From: Amanita rubescens
Lineage: Eukaryota > Basidiomycota > Agaricomycetes > Agaricales > Amanitaceae
DNA length: 64,000 nt
Assembly (NCBI GenBank): GCA_015039365.1
Contig: WION01000186.1
Location: 1 to 64,000, forward strand
Direction of reading: 5' to 3'
A model generated the notes under the pieces. The model was not told where the DNA came from and did not search any database. It saw only the letters and a program-made list of their open reading frames with translations. Each line of letters opens with the position of its first letter. The stretch's first letter is position 1. Made by a program: the position numbers and the translations under genes. Positions 44,233 through 60,705 of this stretch are shown one piece after another.

Positions 44233-44838
44233 TCCTGCTGCTGCATCAGGAGCTGGCAATTAACTGGTAGACGGCTCCATGGTAGGACGGGTCTTAGGTC
44301 AATTCAAACTCCGACTTATCGCGCTAGCCTGAAAGGTCCCCGCAACCTATTCCTGCAACCTTTAGGTTGAGGGTCTTACGAGGCTGAGACTGTCATATGT
44401 ATTGCATGTATCATGTATGTGACTTGTTGGGCAAGTGTGTCATATATCAAATGATCCAGCCTCCAGGTAAGATGTCTTCATGCTCGAACTCTGCAGGAAC
44501 ATTCTCATCTTACATATAAGTTTATAACAACAAGTTCAGGACAACATATGTCACCGGGTGAGAAAGAAGTTTTGATTGGGTTGCCTGGCTGAAGTTGGAC
44601 AAACAATGGATATTCGCAATTCCAATCCATCAGGAAAACATGCTTTACCCTTTTGCGAATTTTGTGAATTTTGCAGCTTTTGAGTACTTTTGCAAAAAAT
44701 TTTGTGCAGTTCTGCACAATTTAGCCTATTCTAGACACCTGAAAAAGGACACAAAAGGATAGGGGGGCATGACTTTTTCTGGCTTTTTCTGCTTTTGCAG
44801 ACTTTTTCCAATTTTTATGGTCATAAAATGAGGCAAAA
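44233..44838. other. Left border of the CpG-poor, AT-rich island
   Basis: No gene is seen. From about 44,660 rightwards CG dinucleotides become very rare. The last cluster of them is at 44,290-44,350. Confidence 0.5.
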
Positions 44839-44998
44839 GTGGAAAAAGGTGGAAAAAGGTGGAAAAAGGTGGAAAAAGGTGGAAAAAGGTGGAAAAAGGT
44901 GGAAAAAGGTGGAAAAAGGTGGAAAAAGGTGGAAAAAGGTGGAAAAAGGTGGAAAAAGGTGGAAAAAGGTGGAAAAAGGTGGAAAAAGGTGGAAAAAG
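44839..44998. repeat. 10-bp minisatellite, GGAAAAAGGT x about 16
   Basis: There are fifteen exact copies plus 8 nt of a sixteenth. Because 10 is not a multiple of 3, each strand's three frames encode the same ten-residue periodic peptide and all stay open (WKKVEKGGKR on plus, FHLFPPFST on minus). The several open frames here are therefore artefacts of the repeat. Confidence 0.97.
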
Positions 44999-44999
44999 C

Positions 45000-45659
45000 C
45001 ATGTTGCAAAAGGATGCAAAATGAACTGCACCTTTTCCTGATGTCTTGATATGGCATACCCCATGATGACAACAATGGAGTATTATTGTGATTAATGCAA
45101 TTTGCATTAATCCCCTATCAATGCCCTGGGATGGATAGTGAAGCCAGACCTTCCTAGATGGCATTGTGCACATGGGTGGACCAGGGTAGACCAACCTCTA
45201 CAAAGCGAGATAGTAACTCTCATGTTGCCAGATCACAATAAAGCACCTATGCCAAGTTTGCCAGAAGTTGATTCTCAACATAAAACTCAATTCCTCTCTT
45301 CATTCTCTTCAATCTTGTGTGACTGTTCTTTTCTGAGCCTAGTATCACATCATATTCACATGTGCACTGCCCCATTATGTCTATGACACTATAAATCTCA
45401 AGACTGCCAGTGGGGACATATAAGCAATAGAATTCAAATTACAACACCAATAATGTCTACATCAGAGAGAAAATTTGAGACAGATGCATAGGCAGCCAAG
45501 GGAACACATATGAGAAAGTTGATCTATGTGCAGATAAATATGATCTCAATGCAGAGGTGGTGCAGCTAATAAATCACCTGGATACCATGCCATGTGTTTC
45601 AGCCTGCCATAAATTGTTCATAAGTAGTCCATGACTAGGCAAAGTACATACCATCAATA
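45000..45659. other. CpG-poor, no gene
   Basis: AT-rich sequence with a local palindrome (ATTAATGCAATTTGCATTAAT, about 45,091-45,111) and no supported gene. Confidence 0.4.
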
Positions 45660-46262
45660 TGAGTTGGCACCTGCCTATGGAGTAATGTGACAAAATCATG
45701 ATGACCAGAGTGCATAAAGTTAGGAGTAATGTCAGTCTTCAGCTTCTGGACATAGCCTTTTTGCTTGTATTGATCCAAGGCCTCTGTGACTGATGGCAGA
45801 AATGGTTTATTGATCCAAAAGGATAGCTTGGCAATGATAACAATTGCTTGAAAGTTTAAGCATAAATACAGTAAATGAAAGAAATAATTTACAAACTAAG
45901 ATCTGGCAATCAGTTATCTTATTCTGCAATGGCATCAGTTGTTTGCTACACACTGGAAAAGAAACAAATAAAAACCTTGATGTTCCTTTCCTTGTCTCTA
46001 AACATGAACTTGCTGGCTGCAAAGTCCCTTTGCTTGTCTCCAAACATGGAGCAAAGTTCACCCTAGTAGTTATCAGATAGAGTAAAGCATCCAATGTATC
46101 ATCAGACCTACAGGCTAGCATGCAAGCCAATATCAACATCAAAATCTCATGAACCAGCAAGGCTACTCACCTGGAAATCGAGGAAAGTGATATAAGTGAG
46201 ACTAATGATCACATGAGGTGGCAGTGGGCCAGCTGGAATCTTACAATCTGTGATGATAATAA
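45660..46262 (-). pseudogene. Decayed transposase fragment, possibly Plavaka-type
   Basis: A spliced-looking segment CKIPAGPLPPHVIISLTY (about 46,245-46,175) is bounded by CACAG and GTGAGT. Its IPAGPLPPHVI core resembles a conserved motif of basidiomycete Plavaka (CACTA-like) transposases. Further down, ALDQYKQKGYVQKL...DITPNFMHSGHHDFVTLLHRQ (about 45,780-45,660) also looks coding. Intervening sequence is broken. It lies downstream of the intron-like array on the same strand and may be the remains of the array's 3' partner. Confidence 0.35.
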
Positions 46263-46365
46263 TGTAAAAGGAAGGCATGTTGGAAAAGATATGGCAACAT
46301 GCTCACTTTCTATAATGATATATTGAACATCAGTGAATTGAAGAATGTACTAAGATCAGAAAATT

Positions 46366-48889
46366 TGCAATGTCACTCACAAGCTGTTGGTCAAAGGAAA
46401 AGAAGTCATGAGACTGCCTGTCACAAAATATACTATGTCATTCACTCCCTGTCAGTCACAGGAAAAAATGTGATGAGACTGCCTTGGAGAGAATATACAA
46501 TGTCACTCACTTGCTATTGGTCACAGGATTGAAAGAGCTTTTCACAAAATGTGCAACATCACTTACCAGCTGTTGGCCATAGATGAGACTGCCTTTCTCA
46601 AAATGTCCAATGTCACTTACTTCCTGTTGGCCATATTGATGAGACTGTCTTTCATAAAATGTGCAATGTCACTCACAGACTGTTGATCATAAGAAAAAAT
46701 GTGATGAGACTGCCTTTCACAAAATGTGCAATGTCACTCACTTGCTGTTGGTCATAGGATAAAATGTGATGAGACTGCCCATCACAAAATGTGCAATGTC
46801 ACTAACTCGCTGTTGGTTATAGGAAAAGATGCAATGAGATTGGCTTTCACAAATTGTGATAATGTCACCTACAGACTATTGGTCATAGAAAAAGATGTGA
46901 TGAGACTGTTTTTCACAAAATGTGAAATGTTACTCACTTCCTGTTGATCAGTTCAATATGGTGCTGAGATTGCCTTCAATAAAATGTGCAATGCCACTCA
47001 CAAGCTATTGGTCATGGAATAAATGTGATGAGACTTCCTTCCTTTCACACAATGTGCAATGTCACTCACAGACTGTTGGTCATAGGAAATGCTGTTTACA
47101 AAATGTGTAATGTCACTCACAGACTGTTGGTCACAGGAAAAGAGCCAATTCACAAAATGTGCAATGTCACTCACAAGCTGTTGGTCATAAGAAAAGATCT
47201 GATGACACCACCATTCACAAAATGTGGAATACAGTCACTCACTCCCTGTTGATGATAGGAAAAGATGTGATGAGACTGCTGTTCACAAAATGCACAATGT
47301 CATTCACTTCCTGTTGGTCATTCAAGGAAAAGATGTGATGAGATTGCCTTTCACAAAAAGTGCAATGTCACTCACAGACTGTTGGTCATAGAAAAAGAAT
47401 GTGATGAGACTGCCTTTCACACAATGTTCAATGTCACTCACTTGCTGTTGGTCATAGGGAAAGATCTGATGAGGCTGCCTTTCACAGAATGTGTACTGTC
47501 ACTCACTTGCTGTTGGTCATAGGAAAAGATGTTTGGACTTTTATTATTATTACAAATCACACAACATCAGTGACTCACTTGCTGGTTGTCATAGGAAAAA
47601 ATGTGATGAGACTGCCTTTCACAAAATATGCAATGTCCCTCACATACTGTTGGTAAAACATGTAATGAGACTGCCTTTCACAAAATGTGCAATGTCACTC
47701 ACTTGCTGTTGGTCATTGGAAAAGATGTGATGAGATTGCCTTTCACAAAATGTGCAATGTCACTCACTTGCTGTTGGTCATAGGAAATGATGTGATGAGA
47801 CTGCCATTTATAAAATGTGCAATGTTACTCACTTGCTGTTGGTCATTGGGGAAGATGTGATGAGCCTTCCACAAAATGAACACCACTCACAGACTGTTGG
47901 TTATAGAAAAGGTGTGATGAGATTGCCTTTTACAAATTGTGCAATGTCACTCACAAGCTGTTGGTCATAGGAAAAGATGTGATGAGGCTGCCTTTCATCA
48001 AATGTCACTCACTTCCTGCTAAAGATGTGATAACTTGACTGCCTTTCACAAAACATCACTCACTTGCTGTTGGTCATAGGAAAAGATACAATGAGACTGC
48101 ATTTACAACAAGATGTCCATTGAATGCCACTGTGTCACTCACTTGCTGTTGGTCATAGGAAAAGATGTGACAAGACTGGGGCCTTCCACAAAATGTCTAA
48201 TATCACTTACTTCCTGTTGGTTGTAGGATAAAATGTGATGAGACTGCAATTAACAAAATGTCTATGTGACTCACACGCTGGAGTCAGTCATAGGAAAAGA
48301 TATGATGAGACTGCTTTTCACGGAATGTGCAATGTCACTCACAAACTGTTGATTATAGGAAAAGATATGATGATGAGAATGTCTTTAACAAATGTCCAAT
48401 GGTCACCATGTCACTCACAAACTGTTCCATGGTTAGAGGAAAAATGTGATGAGGCTGCCTTTCACAAAATGTCCAATATCCAAGTCACTCACAAGCTGTT
48501 GGTCATAGAAAAAAATGTGATGAGACTGCCTTTTACAAAATGTCCAATGTCACTCACTCGCTGTTAATCATAGGAAAAGATGTAATGAGGCTGCCTTTCA
48601 CACAGTATATGTAGTATAATGTCACTCACAAGCTATTTGTCATAGGAAAAAATGTGATATTATGTCACTATGTCACTCACTCGCTATTGGTCAAAGGAAA
48701 AGATGTGATGAGATTGCCAAGTTTTCACAAAATATCCAATCATTTTACTCACTTGCTGCCATTGGTCATGGGGAAAGACATGATGAGGCAGCCTTTCACA
48801 AAATGTGCAATGTCACTCACTTCCTGTTGGTTATAGTACAGGGAAAGTACTGCCTTTCACATAATATGTAATGTCACTCACTCTCTGTT
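46366..48889 (-). repeat. Array of 65-bp intron-like units separated by 3-nt exons, left part
   Basis: About 40 units with a modal period of 65 bp (for example ATGAGA at 47,665, 47,730 and 47,795). Read on the minus strand, each unit is GTGAGTGACATTGCACATT...CCTATGACCAACAG followed by a variable triplet, then the next GTGAGT. Every unit has an AG before the triplet and GT(R)AGT or a close variant after it, and its length (about 62 nt) equals a normal basidiomycete intron. Triplets read mainly CAA, GAA, TCT, CTT, CGA, GGA, TTT and TAT. None that I could read is TAA, TGA or TAG. The right part resumes after the retrotransposon. CpG is nearly absent. Confidence 0.85.
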
Positions 48890-49313
48890 TGTTATGTTTG
48901 TTCGTTCACTGATAAGTCAAGCCTATCAGGTACCGTAGGTTCCTCAAGGGAATTCCGGCACTTAAGAACGTTCAATGAAATAGGAGTGTTATCGGATAAG
49001 TCCTCAAGGGAGCTTAGACGATAACGAGACAGATTTTGACTGTTAAAACTAGACTGAGGTCTAGTCGTATATTTGCGTGATTTATATAGTACAGAGTACA
49101 TACGCAAATATGGTAAGTATATATGCATGTGATAATGAAAACGGTTGCATGTGATAATGAAACGGTTAACATGTGAAAAACGAACATACATGTGATAAAG
49201 GTAATTGGCATATGATAAACGATGAATGTTCCGGAAGGAACGCATATGCAAATAACGGCATAGGAGGGATGATAAGGTAAGAAAAAGACAGGCCATGACG
49301 TACGTTTGTAACA
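48890..49313 (-). repeat. 3' LTR
   Basis: 424 bp, the same as 56,955-57,378 in length and, by eye, in sequence. It contains the short palindrome ACTAGAC-TGAG-GTCTAGT. Confidence 0.95.
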
Positions 49314-49316
49314 TAG

Positions 49317-49326
49317 CCCTTCTCCT
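49317..49326 (-). other. Polypurine tract
   Basis: AGGAGAAGGG on the element's sense strand, 3 nt from the 3' LTR, is where plus-strand DNA synthesis would be primed. Confidence 0.65.
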
Positions 49327-49370
49327 ACATACGAAGTCCAATATTCACCGAATATTGAAATAATTTGTGA

Positions 49371-51581
49371 CTACGTGTCACGGTTGTGTTCGGCATCGCT
49401 GTCGTAGGTGTAAGAGTCTTCATTTCCTTGCCAGGGATGACGACGGCGGCGGCGGTTATCAGTAAGTCGTTCTTGAAGAGTCGATCGCTCTTCTCGTGTA
49501 TTCGAGGCGGTCATAGTGGCGATATGTCGTGTTGATTGTCCTCGTGTGGATTGGCCTCGACGGTTTCCAAGGTTTCGTCGTGATGGTGGAGGTCCAGTAG
49601 TAGTAGTAGTGAAACGGTTACCTGGAGGACGAGTATTTGTTCCTCGTTGTCTTCTTTCAATAAGTGGGGAAGGTTCGCCTTGTTCAAGTTGGGCGGAATC
49701 GATAGTAGTAGCGGGTGAGGCGGTAGAAATTCGTCTTTCAGGGATTTGTTCAAACGGTGTGGGCAGCGACGATTGTGTCATAGCGTCTGGATAAGTGGGA
49801 GGCGGGGTTTCCTCATGCATCGGTCCTCGGCGTATTTCTCGTCGTTGATGGTGCTCGGTAGTGTGATGTGGGGCTCCGCACATGTAACAGCCTTGAGTTC
49901 CAGGGATATCTTCTCCTTCGAAGGCTAGGTTATTTGGTTCGAACGACACCAATCGTTCGGCTGAGGGATCAGGTCCGTGCAGGTGAAAGATAGTGCGACG
50001 TGTCGGATTTTCAAGGATAGGGACATCGCGTCCTTCAATCGTATGTCCTGTTTGAAGTGCGATGACGGCGGCGTCTTGGTATTCGTTATTGGTATTAGGT
50101 CTGTTAGGGCTACGATCGTGCCTCCATACGAGATTATTAATCGTCGTTTGTAGTTGTCGTAGTATAGTTACATCCCAACCATCAGGGGTCATCATTGGGT
50201 TGAGACGGTCGCTAAGGGTTCGAATACGTTCGAACGTAGCATTGACGGGAGTGCGGGGAAATACAGGGCGTCCGTGCATCCAGGCCATGCCAGTGTCTAA
50301 AGCGGGTTGTCGTGTTGGTTGGATGAAATGGTGACGATGTCCGGCGGTGGTAAGACGGGTTGCTTCTTCGAGGTATACGTCTCCTCGTAAGTCACAAAAC
50401 CAATGAATATTGTTCCAGATCATCAGGGTGATCCAGCGGTTGCGTTGCGGTTCTCGGAACCGGCGGGTAAGATTAATGATGACGTTAACGAGGGCCATCA
50501 GATCAGGGCGAACATATCTATTCAAGATGAACAGATAGTTGTTGGCAAAGGTCCAGGATGTGAATAACGTCCAGATTCGGTAAAAGGCTCGTCGAATTAT
50601 TGGATCCACGAAGGAGGGGATGGCGTAATGCGTCAGGATGACGTTTATAGCGGGAATGTCAGGTGCGGGCACATTAAAGTTGTCGTCATTGACAGAGGCG
50701 TGCTGGAAGTAGAACCTAGGAATAGGTCCTTCGGCAGGGAGTCTAGGTACTGGACTCATGGATCGAGCGTGAGTTTCCCTCATTAAATCCAATGGGGTGT
50801 AAAGGGGCCTTGGCGATGGAGTGTCTTCTGGGAAGACAATAGGGATTGAAATGGGATTGACGAGTCTTTCATTGATCTCATCATCGATAGCAGCATTGGC
50901 GGTGATGGTATCGATTTCGGCGGCAACAGCGTTAGCGGCGGCAGAGATGGCAGCGGTGGTTGCGGCATTGGTGGCAGCGATGGTTCTTGCCCTTTCGAGG
51001 TAGTCGTTGACGAGTTCTTCATCAATAGGAGGAACTCCCAGGGTAAAGGCGGTGGTATTGAACATGAGTAGTCCTTCTCGCATGATCCGGATATCCTCAG
51101 AGGTGGTGTCGGGACGTGGTCCGCGTGCGTAGGTGATAACCATTTGGTCTCTGGTGGCGAATACTTGAGCCACCATTTCCTGCATTTCGGGTGGCACAGG
51201 GGTATCAGGGAGAATAGCGTTCCCCATATCTGTGACGTTTCGCATTAGTTCTTCTATCGTAGAAGCGTTTGATGGTGGGAAGGTATAGGATGAGTCAGAA
51301 GATGAAGAATCTTCTTCTCGTGGCATGAATTCCTCGTCAGAAGGAATTATAGGGAACCATTCTGTACCGATGGATGTGTAATGTAACATACAGATGGGAG
51401 GAGGAATTGGCAATGGTGCGGGTGATTCCTCTCTAGAAGGGGTCGGAGGGACGGTTTCCTCGACGACTGTTGAAGCGGCTGGAGTAGCAGCGGCGGATAG
51501 GTTATCAATGGGGGAGGACATGGTTTCAAGAGCGGCGTTTTCGTGGTTTACGAATAGTGGGGGTAGTTGCTGTGATTCCAT
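49371..51581 (-). CDS. Retrotransposon ORF3, 736 residues, unknown, with a CCHH zinc knuckle
   Basis: A complete open frame lies downstream of pol, where some retroelements carry env. Its ATG at 51,581 overlaps the pol end by 56 nt in another frame. The N-terminal third is acidic, Pro/Ser-rich and then Ala-rich (about residues 200-240). The middle (about residues 290-520) is helical and Trp/Arg-rich (IRRAFYRIWTLFTSWTFANN, FREPQRNRWITLMIWNNIHW). Near residue 580 is CYMCGAPHHTTEHH, which has CX2CX4HX4 knuckle spacing with His in the last position. An Arg/Thr-rich tail follows. I see no signal peptide or membrane anchor, so it is unlikely to be an envelope. The layout is that of a second Gag-like, nucleic-acid-binding protein. 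Confidence 0.85.
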   Translation of the reverse strand: MESQQLPPLFVNHENAALETMSSPIDNLSAAATPAASTVVEETVPPTPSREESPAPLPIPPPICMLHYTSIGTEWFPIIPSDEEFMPREEDSSSSDSSYTFPPSNASTIEELMRNVTDMGNAILPDTPVPPEMQEMVAQVFATRDQMVITYARGPRPDTTSEDIRIMREGLLMFNTTAFTLGVPPIDEELVNDYLERARTIAATNAATTAAISAAANAVAAEIDTITANAAIDDEINERLVNPISIPIVFPEDTPSPRPLYTPLDLMRETHARSMSPVPRLPAEGPIPRFYFQHASVNDDNFNVPAPDIPAINVILTHYAIPSFVDPIIRRAFYRIWTLFTSWTFANNYLFILNRYVRPDLMALVNVIINLTRRFREPQRNRWITLMIWNNIHWFCDLRGDVYLEEATRLTTAGHRHHFIQPTRQPALDTGMAWMHGRPVFPRTPVNATFERIRTLSDRLNPMMTPDGWDVTILRQLQTTINNLVWRHDRSPNRPNTNNEYQDAAVIALQTGHTIEGRDVPILENPTRRTIFHLHGPDPSAERLVSFEPNNLAFEGEDIPGTQGCYMCGAPHHTTEHHQRREIRRGPMHEETPPPTYPDAMTQSSLPTPFEQIPERRISTASPATTIDSAQLEQGEPSPLIERRQRGTNTRPPGNRFTTTTTGPPPSRRNLGNRRGQSTRGQSTRHIATMTASNTREERSTLQERLTDNRRRRRHPWQGNEDSYTYDSDAEHNRDT

Positions 51582-54500
51582 GTTGTTCCTTATATTCGTT
51601 TAAGGTCTCTTCGGAGTGTTCTAAGTTTTCCTCGGTTTCCCATGAATTGTCAGATGTCGGATAACCTTTCCATTTGACTAAAAATTGCCATTGGTTTCCT
51701 TTTCTTCGGTGCGAGACAATCGTCTCGATTTCGTATTCTTCTTTGTTATCTATAAGGTCTGGGGTTGGTCTGGTAAAGTTTGGACCATGTGTTTCGTTTT
51801 CATGATAAGGGGTAAGGAGTGAAACATGAAAAACGGGGTGAATCTTCCATCTTGGGGGAAGTTCAAGTTTAGCGGTGACAGGTCCTAAGATCTTTTCGAT
51901 CTTGAACGGTCCTTCTCGTCTAGGCGAGAATTTTCTTATTTGTCCAGTTTTCAGGTTTCGTGAGTCTAGCCATACCAAGTCTCCTTCTTTAAATGCGGGA
52001 GATTTCCCTTTGACACGTTGAGTCATTAGCTGTCTAGCTAATTCGTGTGCGGCGAGAGCTTCGTCTCGTATTTGTGTTAAGACCTTGAAGCGGTCTTCAG
52101 CGGCGGGTACGTTGATTCGCGGGAATGCTGTGGGGATAGCCACAGGCTCTATTCCAAACATGATTTCAAACGGCGTCATCTTGGTAGATTGATGTATTCG
52201 TTGATTGTGCGCGAATTCTGCTAATGGCAGATGATCTTTCCATTGTTTTGGATGATCAACGCAGTATAACCGGAGGTAGGTTTCTAGCTCTTGATTGAGT
52301 CGTTCCGATTCTCCGTCAGTTTGCGGGTGAAAGGCGGTCGACTTTCTATGGTTAATTCCGAAGATCTTGCAGATTTCTTCGAAAACTTTAGAGGTAAATT
52401 GTGGTCCTCTATCGGAAATGAGGGTTGTTGGTAACCCGTATCGTTTATAAACATCGTTAATATAAGAGTTGGCGGTATCCATAGCGGTAAAAGATTTTTT
52501 GCATGGTATGAATATTACGCCCTTTGTTAAGCCTTGATCGACCACGGTCAAAACAGAATCAAAACCGTCGATAATTGGCAGATCTGTGATGAAGTCCATT
52601 GAAACTTGTTCAAATGGGCGTGTGGCGTGGGATTTAATAGGCATCAAACCCGGTGTGATCGGATGTGTATTAACCTTCATTTGTTGACATAAGGCACAGC
52701 CTTCGACCCATTTAGATACGGTCGTTGTCATTCCAGGCCAATAATAGTCGCGGCGGATAAGCTCTAGTGTCTTTAATCGTCCAGGGTGACCCATAACTAC
52801 GGGGTCGTGATGTGACTTGATTATTTCATTTCGTAATTCTTCGTTTTGAGGAACATAAACGCGTCCTTGATAACGAATGATGTTGTTATCGTTCTTCCAG
52901 TCATTAAACTTTGATCGGAGGGGTAGTTTTCCGTGTTTGAGACCGTCGATTACAACTTTAGCGAATTTGTCTTGTGGCAATAATTCAGTGATTTTATCTG
53001 CCCAAGATACATTGATTGCGGCGATAACCATGTCATCAGTGATCATGGTTTGTGGGATTTCTTTTGCTTTTGCCTCTTCTTCGTTAATATGGTCAGGGCG
53101 TCTCGATAAAGCGTCTGCCTGAATAAGTTTTGATCCAGGGACGTGTTCCAACTTGATATCAAACTCTGTGATTTCTTGCCACCAGCGTGACTGTCTGGCG
53201 GTCATCTTTTGTGGATGTTTGTAATATGATAAATTCTTATGATCACAGTGGATCATAATCGTGTGTGGGCTTCCTTTTAGAAGGTGTCTCCAGGTTTCAA
53301 ACGCTTTCTTTATTGCTAATAACTCGCGATCGTATACTTGATATCTTTGTTCGGTATCGCTTAACCGATGACTGATAAATCCGCATGGGTGCAGTTCTCC
53401 ATCAGATCCCCGTTGTTTCAGGACGGCTCCTACCGCCCAGTTTGATGCATCGGTCTCTAATAAAAACGGTTTCGTCGGATCTGGCATTACTAGAACCGGT
53501 TCTTCTAGGAATTTCTCCTTTAACGTGTCAAATGCTTTTTGACATTCTGCATCCCATCGGAAGGGAACTGTTTTCTTTGTAAGTTCCGTGAGCGGAGCTA
53601 CTATTTCGGCGTAATTTCCTATAAATTTCCTGTAAAAGTTCGCGAACCCTAGAAATGACCGTATTTGTTTAACAGTTTTCGGTTCGGGCCATTTGCTGAT
53701 TCCAGCGAGTTTTACGGGGTCCATCATGATCTTTCCTTCTTTGACGATCATCCCAAGGAATTCGACTTCCTTGGCGACGAATTTACATTTTTCCAGTTTC
53801 AGGAACAGATCGTTTTCTTTCAGCCGTTGCAAGACTTGCTTAGTGCGCTCCCTCGTTTCTTCCTCGTTCGCTCCATATATCAACATATCGTCAATATAGA
53901 CGACTAGCCATCCTTCGGCTATCATGTCACGGAAGTATTCGTTCATCATCGTTTGAAATGTTGACGGTGAATTGCATAATCCAAAGAGCATTACAGTAGG
54001 CTCGAAGAGACCACGGTTTGTCGTGAACGCGGCTTTCCATTCGTCGCCTTTCTTTATTCGCACATTATTGTAACCCCATCGGAGGTCTAACTTGGAGAAG
54101 TATTTTGCTTTTCTTAGTTTTAATAATAAGTCGGATACTAAAGGAAGGGGATAGGCATTTCGTTTCGTCCAGCTATTGATGTATCGGTAATCTTGGCAAG
54201 GTCTCAACTCTCCTTTTTCTTTCTTTGCAACGTAAAAGAAAGGAGACGCTTGCGGAGATTGTGATGGTCGAATGTAGCCTTTTTTGAGCTGTTCGTCGAC
54301 CCATTTATTCATTAGCTGTTCTTCGTGGATTGATAACGGGTAGTTCTTCGCCACTTTAGGTTTAAACCCTTCTTTTAGATCTATTGCATGATCCCATTGT
54401 CGTGAAATGGGAAATCGTTCTGATGTCTGTTTATCAAAAACTTTTCTCCATTTGTCATATTCAGGGGGTAATTCTACTTTCGTAGATTTATCTTCGTGTT

Positions 54501-55122
54501 CATGTGCGAGCGCTTGAGACGCTGATGTTTTCGCTTGGATCCAAAGGTGATCAGTCTCGAGATCTTCGTCCTCTTCTGCGTTCAATTCTTCTTCTTTTTG
54601 GATATACCGAAGGTACATTTCGGTTTCTTCGTCGCAATTAAACGTAGTTTCTTCTTCCGGATCGATCTTCCTTTCGTCGGGGAATCTAACTGTTCCTTCA
54701 GACCAATCTATTCTGGGGTTGATTTCTCGGAGCCAAGGTAATCCTAATATCAGTCGTTGATCGCCTAGTCGTGTGACATAAAACCAGTCTTTAAACCGGT
54801 TGTCTTCGATGTTATAGCTTATCTGGATTTTATACCGTATATCTCCAGACTTGTTATTTGTTCCGTCCACATTTCGCACTGGGATGGGTTTCTTTAAGCG
54901 AGTGATTTCGTTCCAATTGACGAGTGAGCTATCGACGAATTTTCCTTGTGCGCCTGAGTCGATAAGGGCTTTGGTTTCAGCGGTTTTTAGATTCGAACAT
55001 TTGGTAATGGGAATGGTGATTTTATTTCTGGATATAGAAGATACTGTTACACCATTTATACATAGTTGTTCGTCTTCAGAGACGACGGACGCTGATTTCT
55101 CGTCGTCTCGTTCTAAAAACCC
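51526..55122 (-). CDS. pol: Pol polyprotein: protease, reverse transcriptase, RNase H, integrase, chromodomain
   Basis: The frame opens in the -1 frame relative to gag at about 55,122 (GFLERDDEKSASVV...). In order it carries the protease active site ALIDSGAQGKFVD, RLILGLPWL, RT blocks FSKLDLRWGYNNVRI and YIDDMLIYG (YxDD), RNase H FLLETDASNWAVGAVL, and a zinc-binding HHCC (HHDPVVMGHPG ... CALCQQ). The integrase core is MDFITDLP / LISDRGPQFTS / SERLNQELE, followed by GPF/Y (RREGPFKIEKIL). A C-terminal chromodomain reads EYEIETIVSHRRKG...FLVKWKGYP..DNSWE. The frame is uninterrupted for about 1,190 codons, so the enzyme set could be functional. The chromodomain suggests targeting to modified histones. 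Confidence 0.95.
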   Translation of the reverse strand, partial: GFLERDDEKSASVVSEDEQLCINGVTVSSISRNKITIPITKCSNLKTAETKALIDSGAQGKFVDSSLVNWNEITRLKKPIPVRNVDGTNNKSGDIRYKIQISYNIEDNRFKDWFYVTRLGDQRLILGLPWLREINPRIDWSEGTVRFPDERKIDPEEETTFNCDEETEMYLRYIQKEEELNAEEDEDLETDHLWIQAKTSASQALAHEHEDKSTKVELPPEYDKWRKVFDKQTSERFPISRQWDHAIDLKEGFKPKVAKNYPLSIHEEQLMNKWVDEQLKKGYIRPSQSPQASPFFYVAKKEKGELRPCQDYRYINSWTKRNAYPLPLVSDLLLKLRKAKYFSKLDLRWGYNNVRIKKGDEWKAAFTTNRGLFEPTVMLFGLCNSPSTFQTMMNEYFRDMIAEGWLVVYIDDMLIYGANEEETRERTKQVLQRLKENDLFLKLEKCKFVAKEVEFLGMIVKEGKIMMDPVKLAGISKWPEPKTVKQIRSFLGFANFYRKFIGNYAEIVAPLTELTKKTVPFRWDAECQKAFDTLKEKFLEEPVLVMPDPTKPFLLETDASNWAVGAVLKQRGSDGELHPCGFISHRLSDTEQRYQVYDRELLAIKKAFETWRHLLKGSPHTIMIHCDHKNLSYYKHPQKMTARQSRWWQEITEFDIKLEHVPGSKLIQADALSRRPDHINEEEAKAKEIPQTMITDDMVIAAINVSWADKITELLPQDKFAKVVIDGLKHGKLPLRSKFNDWKNDNNIIRYQGRVYVPQNEELRNEIIKSHHDPVVMGHPGRLKTLELIRRDYYWPGMTTTVSKWVEGCALCQQMKVNTHPITPGLMPIKSHATRPFEQVSMDFITDLPIIDGFDSVLTVVDQGLTKGVIFIPCKKSFTAMDTANSYINDVYKRYGLPTTLISDRGPQFTSKVFEEICKIFGINHRKSTAFHPQTDGESERLNQELETYLRLYCVDHPKQWKDHLPLAEFAHNQRIHQSTKMTPFEIMFGIEPVAIPTAFPRINVPAAEDRFKVLTQIRDEALAAHELARQLMTQRVKGKSPAFKEGDLVWLDSRNLKTGQIRKFSPRREGPFKIEKILGPVTAKLELPPRWKIHPVFHVSLLTPYHENETHGPNFTRPTPDLIDNKEEYEIETIVSHRRKGNQWQFLVKWKGYPTSDNSWETEENLEHSEETLNEYKEQHGITATTPTIRKPRKRRS

Positions 55123-56917
55123 TTTTTGTTCAATTTTCGGCGGGCGCTACGTGGTAATGTTTTCGCCATTTCTCGTATGACGGCGATTCTCTGGTCTTCG
55201 TCGTTTTCACTGTTGGATTCTTCACTTGACGAGCCACTGTCGTCTTCATCGTTATCCGCATCCAGCGCTCTGATTCTTTTTCCTTTTCCTTTCCCTTTGT
55301 TGCGGTTACTATTTCGGCCGCGTGGTTTTCCTCGAAATTGTCCTCTAGGGGCTGCCCTTCCTCGTGAATTCCCAAGGTTTTGTCGTTTCTTTTTTGGATT
55401 AGGGCAGTCCGAGATTAAATGTCCTGTTTTTCCACATCCATAGCATACAGCGGTTTTTACCCATTCCATGGAGGTTTCAGCAATCTGCATTTGTCGTGCC
55501 TGTCGATTTAATTCAAGTACAGCCTCGTCGACTTCCATTTTGTCATCAAACTCTTTTACTTGGCCAAAAGTGGAGAATAAGGTGTTTGCCACTTCTATGT
55601 CAAGGATACGAGTTCGTAATGATTTATAGGTTGTCGGGGCACCTCCTAGTCGTAGCTTTCTCTCGTAAGGTGTTTGGTAATCCTAAAACTAGGAGATGAC
55701 ATTTCGTCGTATCATCAGTGATTTTGGCTAAATTGATGTCTCGATCGACGCGCGCAATATATTGATTAATTGATTGCTTTGGGAGTTTTCTCCATGTGAG
55801 TAATCTGTGCATGGCTAGTCCTGCTTCGTCTACTTGTCCCCAATCTTCTTTCAGTTCTTTAATAAAAGCGTCATAGTTGGCGTATTTTGTCGTTTCGGCA
55901 TCATATTCAGGTTATTTTGTTGTCGCGCCATTGTTGAGCGTTGCCATCAATATGATACATAATGAACTGTATCTTATCTTGAGCATCCGTCATTTTATTC
56001 ATTTTCATGAATAATTCGGCTTTCGCTATGAACGGATTGAGATATTTTCGATCTCCTTCGAACGGTTTAGGAGGTTTGATCTTCGGTAGATCTGACCTTG
56101 GTTCGGTCCGGGGTCCTGATCCACTCATATCTCGTTCTTTTCCTTTTCTAGAAGGAAATGGGTTGATTGGTGGGGCAAACAAGTATGGAAATACGACAGG
56201 GGGTGATGGTGCGGGTCGTGTAGCTTCGAGTTTAGATTCGGTTGCAAGGGATAAGGAAGCGATGAGTTGAGCTGAGGTTTCGTCTTCAACTCGTTGTTCA
56301 ACTGTGGGTATAACAACGTCTTCGGTTCCAGGTGCGTATTCAAGTTTATCTTGGGATTCTTCTTCTTTCTCTTGTTCAGAGAAGGAATCTTTATTGTCTT
56401 CTTTATCGGACTCTCCTGACGGTTCAGCGCTTTCTCTATAATGAATGTGCGGTGATACAACGGGAGTTTCTTGGCTAATGATTAAGGTTTCTGGTTCATT
56501 CGCTTTCTTCCAACGTTGTAGTGCGGTTTGTGTTAACTCCTCTTTTCCTCCTATGAAGGGTTCTCCTTCAAAGTATTCGTCTCTAATAAAGTACGGTTCT
56601 TCTCCTGTTTCTGATTCAGTGGCGTACCAACGTTTACTTCCTTCGTGAAAGGCAAGTTTGCGTTCGTTTAGATATAATCCTCCTTCGAACGGGAAGGATT
56701 GATTTGGTGGTCTTCCAAGTTTTTGTTTTACCCAGAACTGGTGACCTGGTACGGGTTTCCCTGAAGCGGTATAACACCAGCCGTTTTCTCGTTTATCCCA
56801 ATAAATGGAATGTTCGTTGAGATAATAGAGATGGTCAAGGGGGTTTTGTTTGGCGTTATTCGGAGGGGTACTTTTAGATTGTCGTGGAGCAATGGTGAAT
56901 GATGGGAGGTGAGAGCG
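55113..56917 (-). pseudogene. gag: gag, with two apparent single-base insertions and no AUG at its 5' end
   Basis: The frame is open from 56,917 to about 55,915. It begins PSFTIAPRQSKS, continues through a Trp/Tyr-rich conserved-looking block (HSIYWDKRENGWCYTASGKP), an acidic stretch, and KPPKPFEGDRKYLNPF, the start of the capsid region. It shifts near 55,915 to EYDAETTKYANYDAFIKE and again near 55,660 to LRLGGAPTTYKSLRTRI. It then runs through the zinc knuckle CYGCGKTGHLISDC and an Arg/Gly-rich tail to the TAG at 55,113. The first in-frame ATG is at 56,128, about 260 codons into the open frame. Both shifts fit one extra base and so may be sequence errors. Confidence 0.8.
55116..55122 (-). 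promoter_or_regulatory. Slippery heptamer for -1 gag-pol frameshifting
   Basis: On the sense strand the gag frame ends G-GGT-TTT-TAG. G GGU UUU is a canonical X XXY YYZ slippery site, directly before the gag stop. Slipping back one base enters the long pol frame (GGG TTT TTA GAA). Confidence 0.7.
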
Positions 56918-56941
56918 TTAAAGCTATCGTGCTCGGAGAGG

Positions 56942-56953
56942 AGTCTAGTTTTA
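56942..56953 (-). other. Primer-binding site of self-priming (Tf1-like) type
   Basis: The 12 nt next to the 5' LTR read TAAAACTAGACT on the sense strand, one base from the LTR end. They are exactly complementary to AGTCTAGTTTTA inside the 5' LTR (57,109-57,120). I see no match to a tRNA 3' end. This is the arrangement known from Tf1 and sushi elements, in which the mRNA 5' end folds back to prime reverse transcription. Confidence 0.65.
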
Positions 56954-56954
56954 T

Positions 56955-57378
56955 TGTTATGTTTGTTCGTTCACTGATAAGTCAAGCCTATCAGGTACCG
57001 TAGGTTCCTCAAGGGAATTCCGGCACTTAAGAACGTTCAATGAAATAGGAGTGTTATCGGATAAGTCCTCAAGGGAGCTTAGACGATAACGAGACAGATT
57101 TTGACTGTTAAAACTAGACTGAGGTCTAGTCGTATATTTGCGTGATTTATATAGTACAGAGTACATACGCAAATATGGTAAGTATATATGCATGTGATAA
57201 TGAAAACGGTTGCATGTGATAATGAAACGGTTAACATGTGAAAAACGAACATACATGTGATAAAGGTAATTGGCATATGATAAACGATGAATGTTCCGGA
57301 AGGAACGCATATGCAAATAACGGCATAGGAGGGATGATAAGGTAAGAAAAAGACAGGCCATGACGTACGTTTGTAACA
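56955..57378 (-). repeat. 5' LTR
   Basis: 424 bp, with the promoter and R region. The self-priming model predicts that transcription starts at about 57,120. Confidence 0.95.
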
Positions 57379-59290
57379 CTGTTGGTCATGAGGAAATATG
57401 TGATGAGACTGCTTACACAAAACATGCAATATCACTCACAAGCTGTTGGTCATAGGGAAAGTGCCTTTCACAACAACTGTGCAATGCCATGACTCACTTC
57501 CTGTGAGTCATTGTAGGAAGAGATATTTTTCTCAAATTGTACAATGTCACTCACAGACTGTTCAAGGTCATAGTAAAAGATGTGGTGAGGTGTCTGCCTT
57601 TCACAAAATGTCCAATGTCACTCACAAACTGTTGATCATTGGAAAATATGTGATGAGACTGCCTTTCTCAAAATGTGCAATTCCATAACTGACCCCCTGT
57701 TGATCATAGTAGGGAAAGATGTGATGAAACTGTCTTTCACAGAATGTGCAATGTCACTCACTTGCTGTTTATGAAATGAGATGTGATTTTCACAACATGT
57801 GCAACTTATGATGGAGTGCGGCCACTCACAGACTGTTGGTCATAGCAACAGATGTGATGAGATTGCCTTTCACAAAATGTGCCATGTCCCTCACATACTG
57901 TTGGTAAAAGATGTAATGAGACTGCCTTTCACAAAATGTGTAATGTCGCTCACTTCCTGTTGGTCATAGTAGGAAAAGATGTGATGAGATTTCCTTTCAC
58001 AAATTGTGCAATGTCACTCACAAGCTGTTGGTCATAAGAAAGATGTGCTGAGACTGCCTTTTCCAAAATGTGCAATGTCACTCACTCGCTGTTGGTCATA
58101 GGAACAATGTGATGATACATACTGCCCATCACAAAATGTGCAATATCACTCACTCGCTATTGGTCATGGTATATGATGAGACTTGCCTTTCACAAAATGT
58201 GGAATATAGTCACTCACTCCCTGTTGGTCATATGGAAAGATGTGATGAGATTGCCTTCCACACAAATCTTCAACGTTGCTCACATCCTGTCAGTCATAGG
58301 GAAACAATACATAGAACAGTTTTTTCAGTAATATTTACAATGTTACTCACATACTGTTGGCAATAGGCAAATTTTTGATGAGGTCATCTTTTGAACAACT
58401 AAATCAGCTCGACATGTTGCTAACCACCTATGTTTTATAGGAAGACATGCAATTTTGCTGCTTTTCACAAAACTTGCAATATCACTTACAATCTGTAGAA
58501 CAAATGAATGTGTCCAAATTGTCCTGTACAAAATGGCCATCATCACTCACTTCCTTTTAGAATGGAATTAGCATCATGAATTTGGAAAAAAGAATGCACT
58601 GCACTAACTCTCTTTTGCTATAGTGTTCATATCATGAATTCTCACAAAAGGATCACATACATCCTATTTGTCTTGGAATAGCTTGTGAAGAGGCTTTGAA
58701 AAGGAGGAATATCTACCATCTGTTGTTTTGGGACAAGATGTAATGCTAATGAGCAGACAGGAAGGAAATGTCACTTGCTTTCTGTTATTGATTCAATGAA
58801 GTTGAGACTTGCTTTCAGATAATTATATGTCACCCAACTTTCTATTGTTCATTGAGTTACATGTCTGGTACCTGCACAAAAACCAATGTTGCTTACTTTC
58901 TTTAAGTAGGTCAGATGTGGTGTGAAGCAGTGTTGTATTACATACTCACCCCCTGTCCATGAGAGACTGGATTAACAACTCTGCTTACAATGATAGATTG
59001 GCAACTCACTTGCTATTGGTCATATGATGCACCATGGGACCATTTACAAAAGAAATCAAAATTAAGTCATGGCACTCACTTCCTGTAGATTATGAGACAA
59101 CACTGTTGATCACAAAAAGAAGCACTGTTACTCACAAACTGTCTTACCCACTGATATCAATATCATCAGATCTTGCACCAAGAATATGGTGAAAACTAAC
59201 CTGCCCTTCATCCAGTTGTTCATTGATCATCTGAATCATGACTAATCTTGTTTTCATGTGAAGGCATTGGAGTGTTACTTACTTCCTGAT
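57379..59290 (-). repeat. Array of intron-like units separated by 3-nt exons, right part
   Basis: About 30 further units continue the array. From 57,380 to 58,370 they resemble the 65-bp consensus. From 58,370 to 59,290 their interiors have diverged almost beyond recognition, yet each still has the AG|NNN|GT pattern on the minus strand. Examples are TTCTACAG|ATT|GTAAGTGA, AACATAG|GTG|GTTAGC, TCTACAG|GAA|GTGAGT, CAATAG|CAA|GTGAGT and TCATCAG|GAA|GTAAGT. One unit uses GCAAGT (a GC-AG type donor), and one has a 6-nt exon (GGGCAG). The upstream end abuts the GTPase gene on the same strand. Confidence 0.85.
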
Positions 59291-59347
59291 GAACTTTGAA
59301 AGTATTTATCATTCCATATGAAGGCCACCTACTGCCCTGTCCACCTA

Positions 59348-60705
59348 TTACCATTTAAAGCTTTCTGTGCTAATGTGCAGTGTGACAAGAATACACACCC
59401 AGAAATGTGGAAATTTTGAAAAAACTACAAGAATGACTTGATCCCATGTCCACCAATCTTTGTGTTTCAGAACATGTCTGAAGTTTGAACAATGTTGATG
59501 TTAATAAGTAACATGTTGAATGTTTAAGTGACCCTCACTGAAGTGCAGATTTAACACAAAGGTCAAGATTATTCATCTGTGTTGAAACAAATAGTTGATG
59601 TATGCTGTCATCATCTATTGCATCAGCAGTTTTCTGAGTTAATTCAGCACAATTCTTGTCCAGTAAATCCATGTCTACGAAACAATATTAATCCCATCTT
59701 TTGGCAGAAAGAAAAATCTTACCTTCCAATCGTACACATGCCTTGGGAGGATATTTGGTGTTCAAAACTTTAGGAAGATATACTGTCTGAAAAGTGGTTT
59801 CAGCAACTTCCCTGGCTCTCCCCCACTTATCTTCATCATGTGCATCAGTCAAGTTGACAAATTCACTGGATATTTGACCATCAAATTTAGTGAATATAAC
59901 CACCAAAGGAACTGTTAAGGAAATATTTACTGGTCAACACACTGTAAAATTAGTATTTAGCAATAGTTACCTTTGCCTGTTCCTTTATTAAAGAATTCAA
60001 GTTCTGCAGGTAGGATGGGACGAGGACTGTCCATGGGTATGCAGTACCTACAGAAAGCCAGGTCAGCCAGTACTGTAAAGAGATAGAGCAAGATACCAAA
60101 TTGCATGCAACTGGTTTTTCAGCTCAGTTTCTGCAGACTTCTTTTCAATGAACCTCCAAGCAGCATCCAATTCCTCAGTTGAACCTGATTCAAAACCCTG
60201 AGAGTCATGGAAGATAAAATTACTTCCAGGGTATGTAATTTGATGCTCAATATCATGCAGGCCTCTCTGTTAGAGTCATTTGCATGTGAATAAGTTCATA
60301 CATCATCATCTAACTCACCTCATGTGATGGCACCAAATGAATAGGAGACTGTACAAGCTGATTACCTGCAAGAAATTCAAAATCAAAGGAAGCACAAAAC
60401 TCAAACTGACTGTAGTACCACTCTTGTCATATATGATGGCAATTGTCCCCTTTGCTACACCACAAACCTTCTCAAGGATGGTTGTCTTGCCTGCATTAGC
60501 CCTCCCAATAAGAAGGATGTGAAAGTGCGGGCATTGATAGCGTTCCCTGAGCTCTTGAACATGTGTCTCAGAGTCTGTATCTGCAGTGATATGTGTCAGC
60601 CAAGGATTAGCAATGCTAGATCACACAAATTAGCCTACTACTCAAAGAACTTGGAGGTGCACCACTAGTTGTAGTAGCTGCCATGACTGAAGATGAAGTA
60701 CTCAT
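59348..60705 (-). CDS. P-loop GTPase (G-domain) protein of the expanded basidiomycete family
   Basis: The start at 60,705 (MSTSSSVMAATTTSG) is followed by HFHILLIGRANAGKTTILEKVCG (Walker A/G1) and GTIAIIYDKS. After introns come HEIxYPG-like HQITYPGSNFIFHDSQGFESG (G3 DxxG as DSQG), an alpha region with ELKNQLHAIW, YCIPMDSPRPILPAELEFFNKG, and VVIFTKFDGQISSEF (the G4 NKxD position reads TKFD). Then come WGRAREVAETTFQTVYLP, YPPKACVRLEDMD and MNNLDLCVKSALQ (exon ending about 59,539). A final exon QHVLKHKDWWTW... can be read to a stop at 59,348. Alternatively the transcript continues into the array of 3-nt exons immediately downstream on this strand. Relatives are numerous in Agaricomycetes, with unknown roles. 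The gene lies in the CpG-poor island. Confidence 0.75.

What the first reader, a model, noticed from the sequence alone, without database searches (positions are those of the whole stretch)
46366..59290. Array of about 70 consecutive intron-like units separated by 3-nt exons
Seen directly: on the minus strand every unit I checked reads ...YAG|NNN|GTRAGT..., and each 62-nt interior has the length of a normal basidiomycete intron. Most variation I see between homogeneous units is in the triplet between the two splice sites. In the old, diverged units (58.4-59.3 kb) the interior has changed almost completely while AG|3 nt|GT persists, which is the reverse of neutral satellite decay. Triplets of type NAA (CAA, GAA, AAA) and NGA (CGA, GGA, AGA) are frequent, but TAA, TGA and TAG are not seen, as if each triplet were a codon. 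The array lies immediately 3' of a GTPase gene on the same strand. Inference: a transcript joining dozens of single-codon micro-exons, or serial insertion of introner-like elements leaving 3-nt exon remnants. I know of no described system like it.
Basis: partly seen in the sequence, partly recalled or inferred. Interest (0 to 1): 0.93.

Follow-up and report, generated by a model that had tools for sequence, protein, structure and literature searches.

The report
Gene segment spelled codon by codon
In a mushroom genome that matches Amanita rubescens, a large family of GTPase genes holds runs of dozens of consecutive three-base exons, predicted to be spliced so that a stretch of protein is spelled one codon at a time; the introns between them are nearly identical while the codons differ greatly, which likely lets these genes diversify that stretch quickly.

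Summary
The array is real, and it lies inside a gene, not 3' of one. On the minus strand, eight GTPase exons (60705-59399) lead in phase 0, through a few short exons, into about 70 three-nt exons and then C-terminal exons (46062-45434). An 8.5-kb LTR retrotransposon with identical LTRs splits the array; another copy (C108) has the empty site. Contig lengths identify the genome as Amanita rubescens. At least 2,407 such units occur there; 56 of 61 listed clusters lie before this family's C-terminal exon. A full model of one paralog has 68 exons, 53 consecutive three-nt ones, all GT-AG, and one 459-aa open frame. Two contigs from relatives encode the conserved first block without introns and without a gap, so those codons are spliced together in RNA. 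In the variable block introns are nearly identical (0.4-8% pairwise) while triplets differ at 33-67%; in the old block introns differ more than triplets. Best reading: a hypervariable, probably disordered linker of an IRG/septin-like GTPase, encoded codon by codon, with codons likely swapped as cassettes between homogenised introns. RNA across the variable block, and function, are untested; 5 of 16 paralogous arrays are not open.

The parts
59399..60705 (-). Eight GTPase exons: 60705-60639, 60580-60419, 60365-60319, 60266-60097, 60047-59971, 59911-59723, 59674-59539, 59477-59399; 309 aa ending ...SKFPHFW
   Evidence: joined, GT-AG throughout, no stop; homologs; MMR_HSR1 match below the curated cutoff
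59333..59344 (-). 12-nt exon VDRA
   Evidence: found at the homologous place in 16 of 18 fetched loci; relatives P0003 and P0033 have VDRA and VGRD there
59283..59285 (-). first 3-nt exon (GAA)
59201..59230 (-). 30-nt exon MINEQLDEGQ (MANEQLSEAQ type in paralogs)
   Evidence: found in 17 of 18 fetched loci
59136..59150 (-). 15-nt exon TGGGTAAGACAGTTT; in the other paralogs aligned, two 3-nt exons TGG and TTT with an intron between
58218..59082 (-). Conserved old block of 3-nt exons (GAA CAA GGG AAA AAA AAA ATG GAT AGA GAA ATT GTG TAT GAT GGA), introns diverged
   Evidence: matching residues in P0003 and P0033
57440..58156 (-). Variable block of 3-nt exons, 5' of the retrotransposon
48890..57378 (-). 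LTR retrotransposon (reverse transcriptase, integrase, chromodomain) inserted in the array; LTRs 57378-56955 and 49313-48890 identical; target duplication AACAG
   Evidence: empty site in L040
46381..48884 (-). Variable block of 3-nt exons, 3' of the retrotransposon
46245..46309 (-). Last two 3-nt exons AAA (46309-46307) and ATT (46247-46245); AAA ATT or AAA AAT ends many of the paralogous arrays
45976..46062 (-). Exit exon GELCSMFGDKQRDFAASKFMFRDKERNIK, phase 0
45893..45902 (-). 10-nt exon ATCTTAGTTT
   Evidence: inferred; used at the homologous place in the L043 model
45652..45846 (-). C-terminal exon ...IVIIAKLSFWINKPFLPSVTEALDQYKQKGYVQKLKTDITPNF...
   Evidence: resembles the C-terminus of P0046 and P0080 shown (by eye)
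45434..45456 (-). Predicted last exon with stop codon
   Evidence: inferred; weakest part of the model

Best explanation
This is the middle of a GTPase gene whose linker is predicted to be translated from about 70 three-base exons, one codon each, spliced together across introns that in its younger relatives are nearly identical. Shown: the gene frame enters and leaves the array in phase 0, and one paralog was read open from start to stop codon. Shown in sequences from relatives that lack the introns: the conserved first block is joined codon by codon. Inferred: the variable block is spliced the same way, intron by intron, each splice adding one codon and leaving a new donor directly behind it. 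Inferred: because the introns are alike within and between paralogs, recombination or gene conversion between units can add, drop or swap single codons without touching the frame, and diversifying selection keeps the codons different. The product would be a GTPase with a helical C-terminal domain and a hypervariable, probably disordered linker between them; a role in recognising non-self partners is a guess from that pattern and from the IRG-like fold.
For: Frame: upstream exons (L043) and downstream exons are in phase 0 with the triplets; of 16 complete paralogous arrays parsed, 11 have only 3-nt exons and read open into the exit exon (two pairs among the 11, L042/L045 and L043/L046, are near-identical copies). 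A whole-gene model of L043 has 68 exons, 54 of 3 nt, 53 in a row, 67 GT donors, 67 AG acceptors, 459 aa, no internal stop. RNA: P0003 (contig of 1,446 bp) and P0033 (1,903 bp) encode ...FPHLWVDRAVTNEQLSETKWFEKGKKESDREIEYDG... and ...FPHFWVGRDEMANKQLSEAQWFEHGKKDTDKQIVYDG... without introns; the window's codon-exon peptide WFEQGKKKMDREIVYDG scores 76 and 73 against best shuffled scores of 48 and 41 of 2,000. One gene: 88 of 107 GTPase-exon hits have the C-terminal exon downstream on the same strand within 16 kb, against 3 upstream. Diversity: within arrays triplet columns differ at 0.33-0.67, intron columns at 0.004-0.084, ratio 6.6-85 in 16 arrays. Paralogs 1.3-1.8% apart in the 5' gene have quite different peptides. 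Array introns are closer between paralogs than the genes are in several pairs, at best 0.9% against 8.9%. In the old block the relation is reversed: exons 94/2,233, introns 3,605/46,679 differing. Codon replacement: L043 and L046 differ by CGA CGA to ATC GGA with the introns beside them unchanged. Cassettes: in L045, 9 of 16 unit pairs sharing a non-consensus intron share the triplet, 2.3 expected. Product: P0046 and P0050 are 94% and 95% identical in GTPase and C-terminal parts, 45% with 21 gap positions in the linker; the linker is the low-confidence stretch 295-357 of the model.
Against: No RNA read from this species was mapped; the tools hold none. The two RNA-like sequences come from unnamed sources, their library type is not shown, and beyond ...YDG their tails match none of 12 array peptides better than chance (2 of 24 comparisons near 0.02). 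A targeted search for tails found nothing, and it missed P0033 too, so it is uninformative. Of 16 paralogous arrays 5 are not open: L051 has TGA; L039, L047, L052 and L055 hold exons of 0, 1, 2 or 4 nt and end out of frame. In L039 length changes hit 5 of 47 exons and 1 of 48 introns, which selection on amino acids does not explain; a targeted mutation process or consensus errors in a repetitive assembly might. The stop statistic is confounded: sense TTA/TCA are also rare (2 in the genome), so T-N-A triplets may be avoided for another reason; units and paralogs are not independent. The close copies L042/L045 and window/L040 show no triplet substitution (0/246 and 0/195). The cassette test was significant in L045 and L043 only; of 8 other arrays 3 had no shared variants and 5 no significant excess. 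Intron homogeneity between loci is uneven: L050/L043 4.0% against 4.1% in the gene, L053/L045 4.6% against 8.7%, L040/L043 9.2% against 13.4%, and the comparison used only 62-nt introns within 8 differences of the consensus, which biases it low. The window's own copy is split by a retrotransposon and may be inactive.
Confidence: 0.82

Rival explanations
1. The variable array is removed as one large intron; the triplets are not exons and the repeated splice sites are decoys or recursive-splicing steps whose 3-nt pieces are lost.
For: The annotated A. rubescens protein P0080 joins the GTPase to the C-terminal domain directly. Donors and acceptors are nearly interchangeable, so long-range skipping is possible. 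No RNA for the variable block was seen.
Against: The first block is included codon by codon in P0003 and P0033; full-length P0046, P0050 and P0055 have a variable segment of tens of residues at this place, though the structure of their genes is unknown. Stop triplets are nearly absent and 3 nt is kept in 563 of 587 junctions.
Confidence: 0.08
2. Introns invaded an older, continuous low-complexity coding sequence (introner-like), so the introns are young and alike while the triplets are simply the old sequence.
For: It explains identical introns between different codons, the similarity of array introns across some diverged paralogs and odd exon lengths in four arrays.
Against: Insertion gives no reason for a spacing of exactly 3 nt; 56 of 61 listed unit clusters belong to one gene family; no continuous coding copy of the L045 peptide was found, although that search had no proven power; units with the same rare intron variant share triplets in L045.
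Confidence: 0.2
3. The triplets are diversified by a mutation process aimed at the exon positions, rather than by selection on random mutations.
For: Odd lengths: 5 of 47 exons against 1 of 48 introns in L039, 17 of 43 exons of 3 nt against 13 of 46 introns of about 62 nt in L052, even though they break the frame; in the four closest pairs with changes, 9 of 13 changed triplets differ at two or three bases.
Against: Multi-base changes also follow from exchange of whole units; odd exons may be assembly errors in near-identical repeats; L042/L045 and window/L040 show no triplet change.
Confidence: 0.2
4. An ordinary non-coding satellite with splice-like motifs.
For: Tandem units of about 65 bp, homogenised within arrays.
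Against: Phase-0 entry and exit, open frames in 11 of 16 arrays, spliced relatives, variable triplets in fixed introns, conserved codons in diverged introns.
Confidence: 0.02
5. Assembly artefact.
For: Some copies are near-identical and on separate contigs (L042/L045/L048, L043/L046).
Against: An empty site and a filled site of the same array, and many distinct arrays with conserved flanks on different contigs.
Confidence: 0.02

Closest known systems
Micro-exon genes (MEGs) of schistosomes (passages of PMC4350168)
   Same: Most of a coding region in very small symmetrical exons; a pool of similar proteins; skipping stays in frame.
   Different: No array of one-codon exons between near-identical introns is mentioned in the passages that I saw; there the variation is ascribed to alternative splicing, here the codons differ between genes in DNA. 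(Usual MEG exon sizes above one codon: recalled.)
Bicycle and megacycle genes of aphids (passages of PMC9168663)
   Same: Fast-evolving family with many microexons, more than 100 in megacycle.
   Different: No single-codon arrays or homogenised intron unit in the passages that I saw; unrelated proteins (recalled that exons are longer than one codon).
Single tiny exons: 1-nt exon of Arabidopsis APC11 (PMC4674806, passages), 1-nt exon of Fusarium CYP621A (PMC12940212, abstract), 3-bp exon of Drosophila homothorax (PMC7392893, search listing only)
   Same: Show that exons of 1-3 nt can be spliced, in a fungus too.
   Different: Isolated exons, not dozens in a row.
Introner-like elements of fungi (PMC4457414, passages; PMC9860276, passages)
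   Same: Many near-identical introns in one genome.
   Different: Those sit in unrelated genes; two close ones are 145-626 bp apart in the passage that I saw. Here one gene family and 3-nt spacing.
Recursive splicing at ratchet points (PMC5126111, PMC2773006, PMC8605326, search listing only)
   Same: Acceptor directly followed by donor, so splicing goes step by step.
   Different: There no residue is added; here each step would add one codon.
Repeat-based fungal non-self recognition genes such as HNWD of Podospora (recalled, from no call)
   Same: Repeats kept alike by recombination while a few positions are hypervariable.
   Different: There whole protein repeats; here the homogenised part is intron and the variable part a single codon.

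Membership tests
Micro-exon gene (as in schistosomes) | much of the coding sequence in very small symmetrical exons | tested here: met
   54 of 68 exons of L043 are 3 nt, phase 0, though they give 54 of 459 residues
Micro-exon gene (as in schistosomes) | homology to a known MEG family | not tested
   relatives by sequence are fungal GTPases; no MEG comparison made
Micro-exon gene (as in schistosomes) | isoforms by skipping of exons | not testable with these tools
   no reads available
Introner-like elements | near-identical introns inserted in unrelated genes | tested here: not met
   56 of 61 listed unit clusters lie 5' of this family's C-terminal exon on the same strand; the 5 others were not examined further
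Introner-like elements | target site duplication or terminal inverted repeats | not tested
   none computed; identical neighbouring triplets only mildly enriched
Spliceosomal U2-type introns | GT or GC donor and AG acceptor at every unit | tested here: met
   67 of 67 GT and AG in the L043 model, which was built with these sites; GC donors at single units elsewhere
Spliceosomal U2-type introns | removed from RNA | tested here: inconclusive
   met for the conserved block in relatives P0003 and P0033; not shown for the variable block
Recursive splicing sites | zero-length exon between acceptor and donor | tested here: not met
   0 nt in 1 of 587 strictly flanked junctions, 3 nt in 563
Immunity-related GTPases (IRG) | IRG fold of GTPase plus helical domain | tested here: inconclusive
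Immunity-related GTPases (IRG) | match to a Pfam IRG model | tested here: not met
   no such family among the matches of the window GTPase at E<=1 nor of P0046 at E<=0.001

The most novel reading that the evidence does not exclude
A codon-cassette diversity generator: introns serve as recombination handles around single codons, so that a fungus rewrites a recognition segment of dozens of IRG-like GTPase genes codon by codon, always in frame; and because donors and acceptors match, each gene may in addition yield a large set of in-frame isoforms by skipping.
Probability: 0.4. Interest if true: 0.97.

Novelty: categorically new. Interest (0 to 1): 0.94.

Why it matters
Very small exons are thought to hinder spliceosome binding at both of their ends (passage in PMC4674806); here one genome holds thousands of three-nt ones, in runs of more than 50. 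It would be a natural test bed for stepwise splicing without exon recognition. It also turns the usual rule upside down: introns are held constant and coding triplets vary, which makes it possible to ask directly how codons are added, lost and exchanged. Annotation misses it: the six public A. rubescens proteins of the family that I read stop at or near the GTPase or jump over the array.

Tried and rejected
Reading the triplets out of phase: one shifted frame gives frequent stops (CTT GAA reads as T GA), the other conflicts with the 30-nt exon and the exit exon; phase 0 fits both ends (worked by eye, then). My first entry model (FPHFW directly to a 3-nt exon) was wrong; the relatives showed the extra 12-nt exon VDR(A/E), found then at the homologous place in 16 of 18 loci.

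Search for a continuous coding copy of the L045 peptide: nothing, but without a control. Search of protein databases with the L043 tail: nothing at E<=10 among 508 candidates, and it did not return P0033, so no conclusion. Profile search for further full-length relatives: its 120 listed rows were nearly all proteins; three new ids (P0121-P0123) I did not read. Tails of P0003 and P0033 against 12 array peptides: no match beyond chance. Literature: searches showed no array of single-codon exons; the library holds only open-licence papers and I saw listings, abstracts or passages.

Excess of identical neighbouring triplets: mild, 12 of 13 arrays above the mean of shuffles but only L039, L054 and L055 at P<0.05. 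Fold search: no conclusion on the C-terminal domain by itself; it was not folded apart.


Full report
WHAT IS THERE. On the minus strand of the window, units of the form AG|3 nt|GT run from 59285 to 46245. I count 70 three-nt exons. Intron length is 62 nt most often. An LTR retrotransposon with reverse transcriptase, integrase and chromodomain sits at 57378-48890, between an AG and its triplet; its two 424-nt LTRs are identical, the target duplication is AACAG, and contig C108 (L040) carries the uninterrupted array.

WHICH ORGANISM.

IT IS INSIDE A GENE. Eight upstream exons join to a 309-aa GTPase ending FPHFW. Then follow a 12-nt exon (VDRA), a 3-nt exon, a 30-nt exon (MINEQLDEGQ), a 15-nt exon and the further three-nt exons. 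After the last two (AAA, ATT) comes an exon in phase 0 (GELCSMFGDKQ...) and a C-terminal exon (...AKLSFWINKPFLPSVTEALDQYKQKGYVQKL...). The same order holds in paralogs: 30-nt exon in 17 of 18 fetched loci, 12-nt exon in 16 of 18. Of 107 GTPase-exon hits that I took from the capped list, 88 have a C-terminal exon hit (150 listed) downstream on the same strand within 16 kb, 3 have one upstream. For the paralog L043 I built the whole gene: 68 exons, 54 of them 3 nt, 53 in a row, all introns GT-AG, 459 aa, no internal stop.

HOW MANY. The pattern of the unit occurs 2,407 times at up to 3 mismatches, 0 times for the reversed control, and 992 times exactly in a 24-base core. I read 18 further stretches. 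The 16 complete paralogous arrays hold 25 to 84 parsed units. Of 61 unit clusters in the capped listings, 56 lie 5' of the C-terminal exon on the same strand.

ARE THE TRIPLETS CODONS? Four lines. (1) Phase 0 on both sides. (2) Of 16 paralogous arrays parsed from entry to exit, 11 have only 3-nt exons and are open (L040-L046, L049, L050, L053, L054; L042/L045 and L043/L046 are near-identical copies); L051 has one TGA; L039, L047, L052 and L055 contain exons of 0, 1, 2 or 4 nt and end out of frame. L048 and L056 are incomplete and were left out. Some old units were missed by the parse and seen by eye; being 3 nt they do not change the frame. (3) Genome-wide, exact-core units hold 0 TAA/TGA against 562 other NRA triplets, while T is the first base of 103 of 335 NNT triplets (Fisher P 9e-50). 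The units are not independent, and sense TYA triplets are rare too (2), so this line is weaker than its P value. In the 849 parsed triplets of 17 loci outside the window there are TAA 0, TAG 0, TGA 1. (4) Spliced sequences. Two proteins from JGI contigs of 1,446 and 1,903 bp continue after the GTPase with WVDRAVTNEQLSETK-WFEKGKKESDREIEYDG and WVGRDEMANKQLSEAQ-WFEHGKKDTDKQIVYDG. The window's exons give VDRA-E-MINEQLDEGQ-W..F-E-Q-G-K-K-K-M-D-R-E-I-V-Y-D-G. The 17-residue peptide scores 76 and 73, best of 2,000 shuffles 48 and 41. The library type and species of these contigs are not shown, but frames that run through where the paralogous genes have introns mean processed RNA or a copy of it. This shows splicing of the conserved block in relatives, including positions with AAG acceptors here. 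It does not show splicing of the variable block, and the two tails after YDG match no array that I read.

THE REVERSED PATTERN OF VARIATION. Within 16 arrays other than L040 and the window, triplet columns differ between units at 0.33-0.67 on average, intron columns at 0.004-0.084; the triplet columns are the three most variable of all 65 in 14 of the 16. In the older arrays L040 and window the introns have drifted to 0.19. Between paralogs: L043 against L044, L049 and L039 differ by 1.3-1.8% in the 5' gene and 1.0-2.2% in the 3' flank, yet their array peptides are quite different; L047, a close relative of L043, differs from L039, L044 and L049 at 38-43% of triplet bases and 0.6-0.8% of intron bases. 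L043 and L045 differ by 6.4% in the gene but by 1.5% in array introns; L041 and L045 by 8.9% and 0.9%. The effect is uneven: L053/L045 8.7% and 4.6%, L053/L043 6.7% and 4.5%, L040/L043 13.4% and 9.2%, L050/L043 4.1% and 4.0%; and only 62-nt introns within 8 differences of the consensus were compared, which biases this low. In the conserved old block the opposite holds: exons 4.2%, introns 7.7% over 66 pairs. Against a simple picture: the most recent copies L042/L045 and window/L040 show no triplet change (0/246, 0/195).

HOW CODONS CHANGE. L043 and L046 align over 49 units without a gap; CGA CGA has become ATC GGA while the introns beside them are unchanged. L054 and L055 differ at 13 of 72 triplet bases and 3 of 1,488 intron bases, but L055 is out of frame. 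In the four closest pairs with changes, 9 of 13 changed triplets differ at two or three bases (counted), which point mutation at the intron rate does not predict; exchange of whole codons does. In L045, 9 of 16 unit pairs with the same non-consensus intron share the triplet (2.3 expected), in L043 2 of 2 (0.2 expected); of the 8 other arrays 3 had no such pairs and 5 no significant excess. Repeated four-triplet words exceed shuffles in L039, L044, L045 and L054 of 13 arrays. I infer cassette exchange plus selection for difference. The odd exon lengths in L039 (5 of 47 exons, 1 of 48 introns) and L052 (17 of 43 exons, 13 of 46 introns) are unexplained: exon-aimed mutation, or consensus errors in repeats.

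NOVELTY. My searches found single tiny exons, genes rich in small exons, introners and recursive splicing, but no run of single-codon exons. The library lacks most subscription journals. I call the arrangement categorically new because three traits have no match there together: one codon per exon in runs of dozens, homogenised introns, hypervariable codons.

LIMITS. 

Noticed in passing
window 48890-57378: Young LTR retrotransposon (identical LTRs) inside the array, absent in the second copy on contig C108: an insertion difference between copies or haplotypes.
   Followed up: yes
L039, L047, L052, L055 (arrays): Exons of 0, 1, 2 or 4 nt among 62-nt introns; per base, length changes fall on exons far more than on introns.
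   Followed up: partly
arrays of the fetched loci: Triplets rarely end in G or C; Arg is nearly always CGA, Glu GAA, Gln CAA, Gly GGA; CAG, GAG and TAG do not occur among 849 triplets and AAG 4 times, perhaps to avoid a second acceptor.
   Followed up: partly
genome contigs C12:154266, C111:54738, C124:112260, C3:133741-135558: Unit copies without a detected C-terminal exon downstream; possibly fragments or diverged genes.
   Followed up: no
window 44835-44998: 10-bp tandem repeat AAAGGTGGAA, 16.4 copies, 99% matches, 3' of the gene.
   Followed up: no
window 5681-8029 (-), 28356-29624 (-), 38934-40574 (+): Long open frames without a Pfam match at E<=0.001.
   Followed up: no
L042, L045, L048; L043, L046: Near-identical arrays on different contigs, probably haplotype copies; L042 and L045 differ by one CGA unit.
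   Followed up: partly
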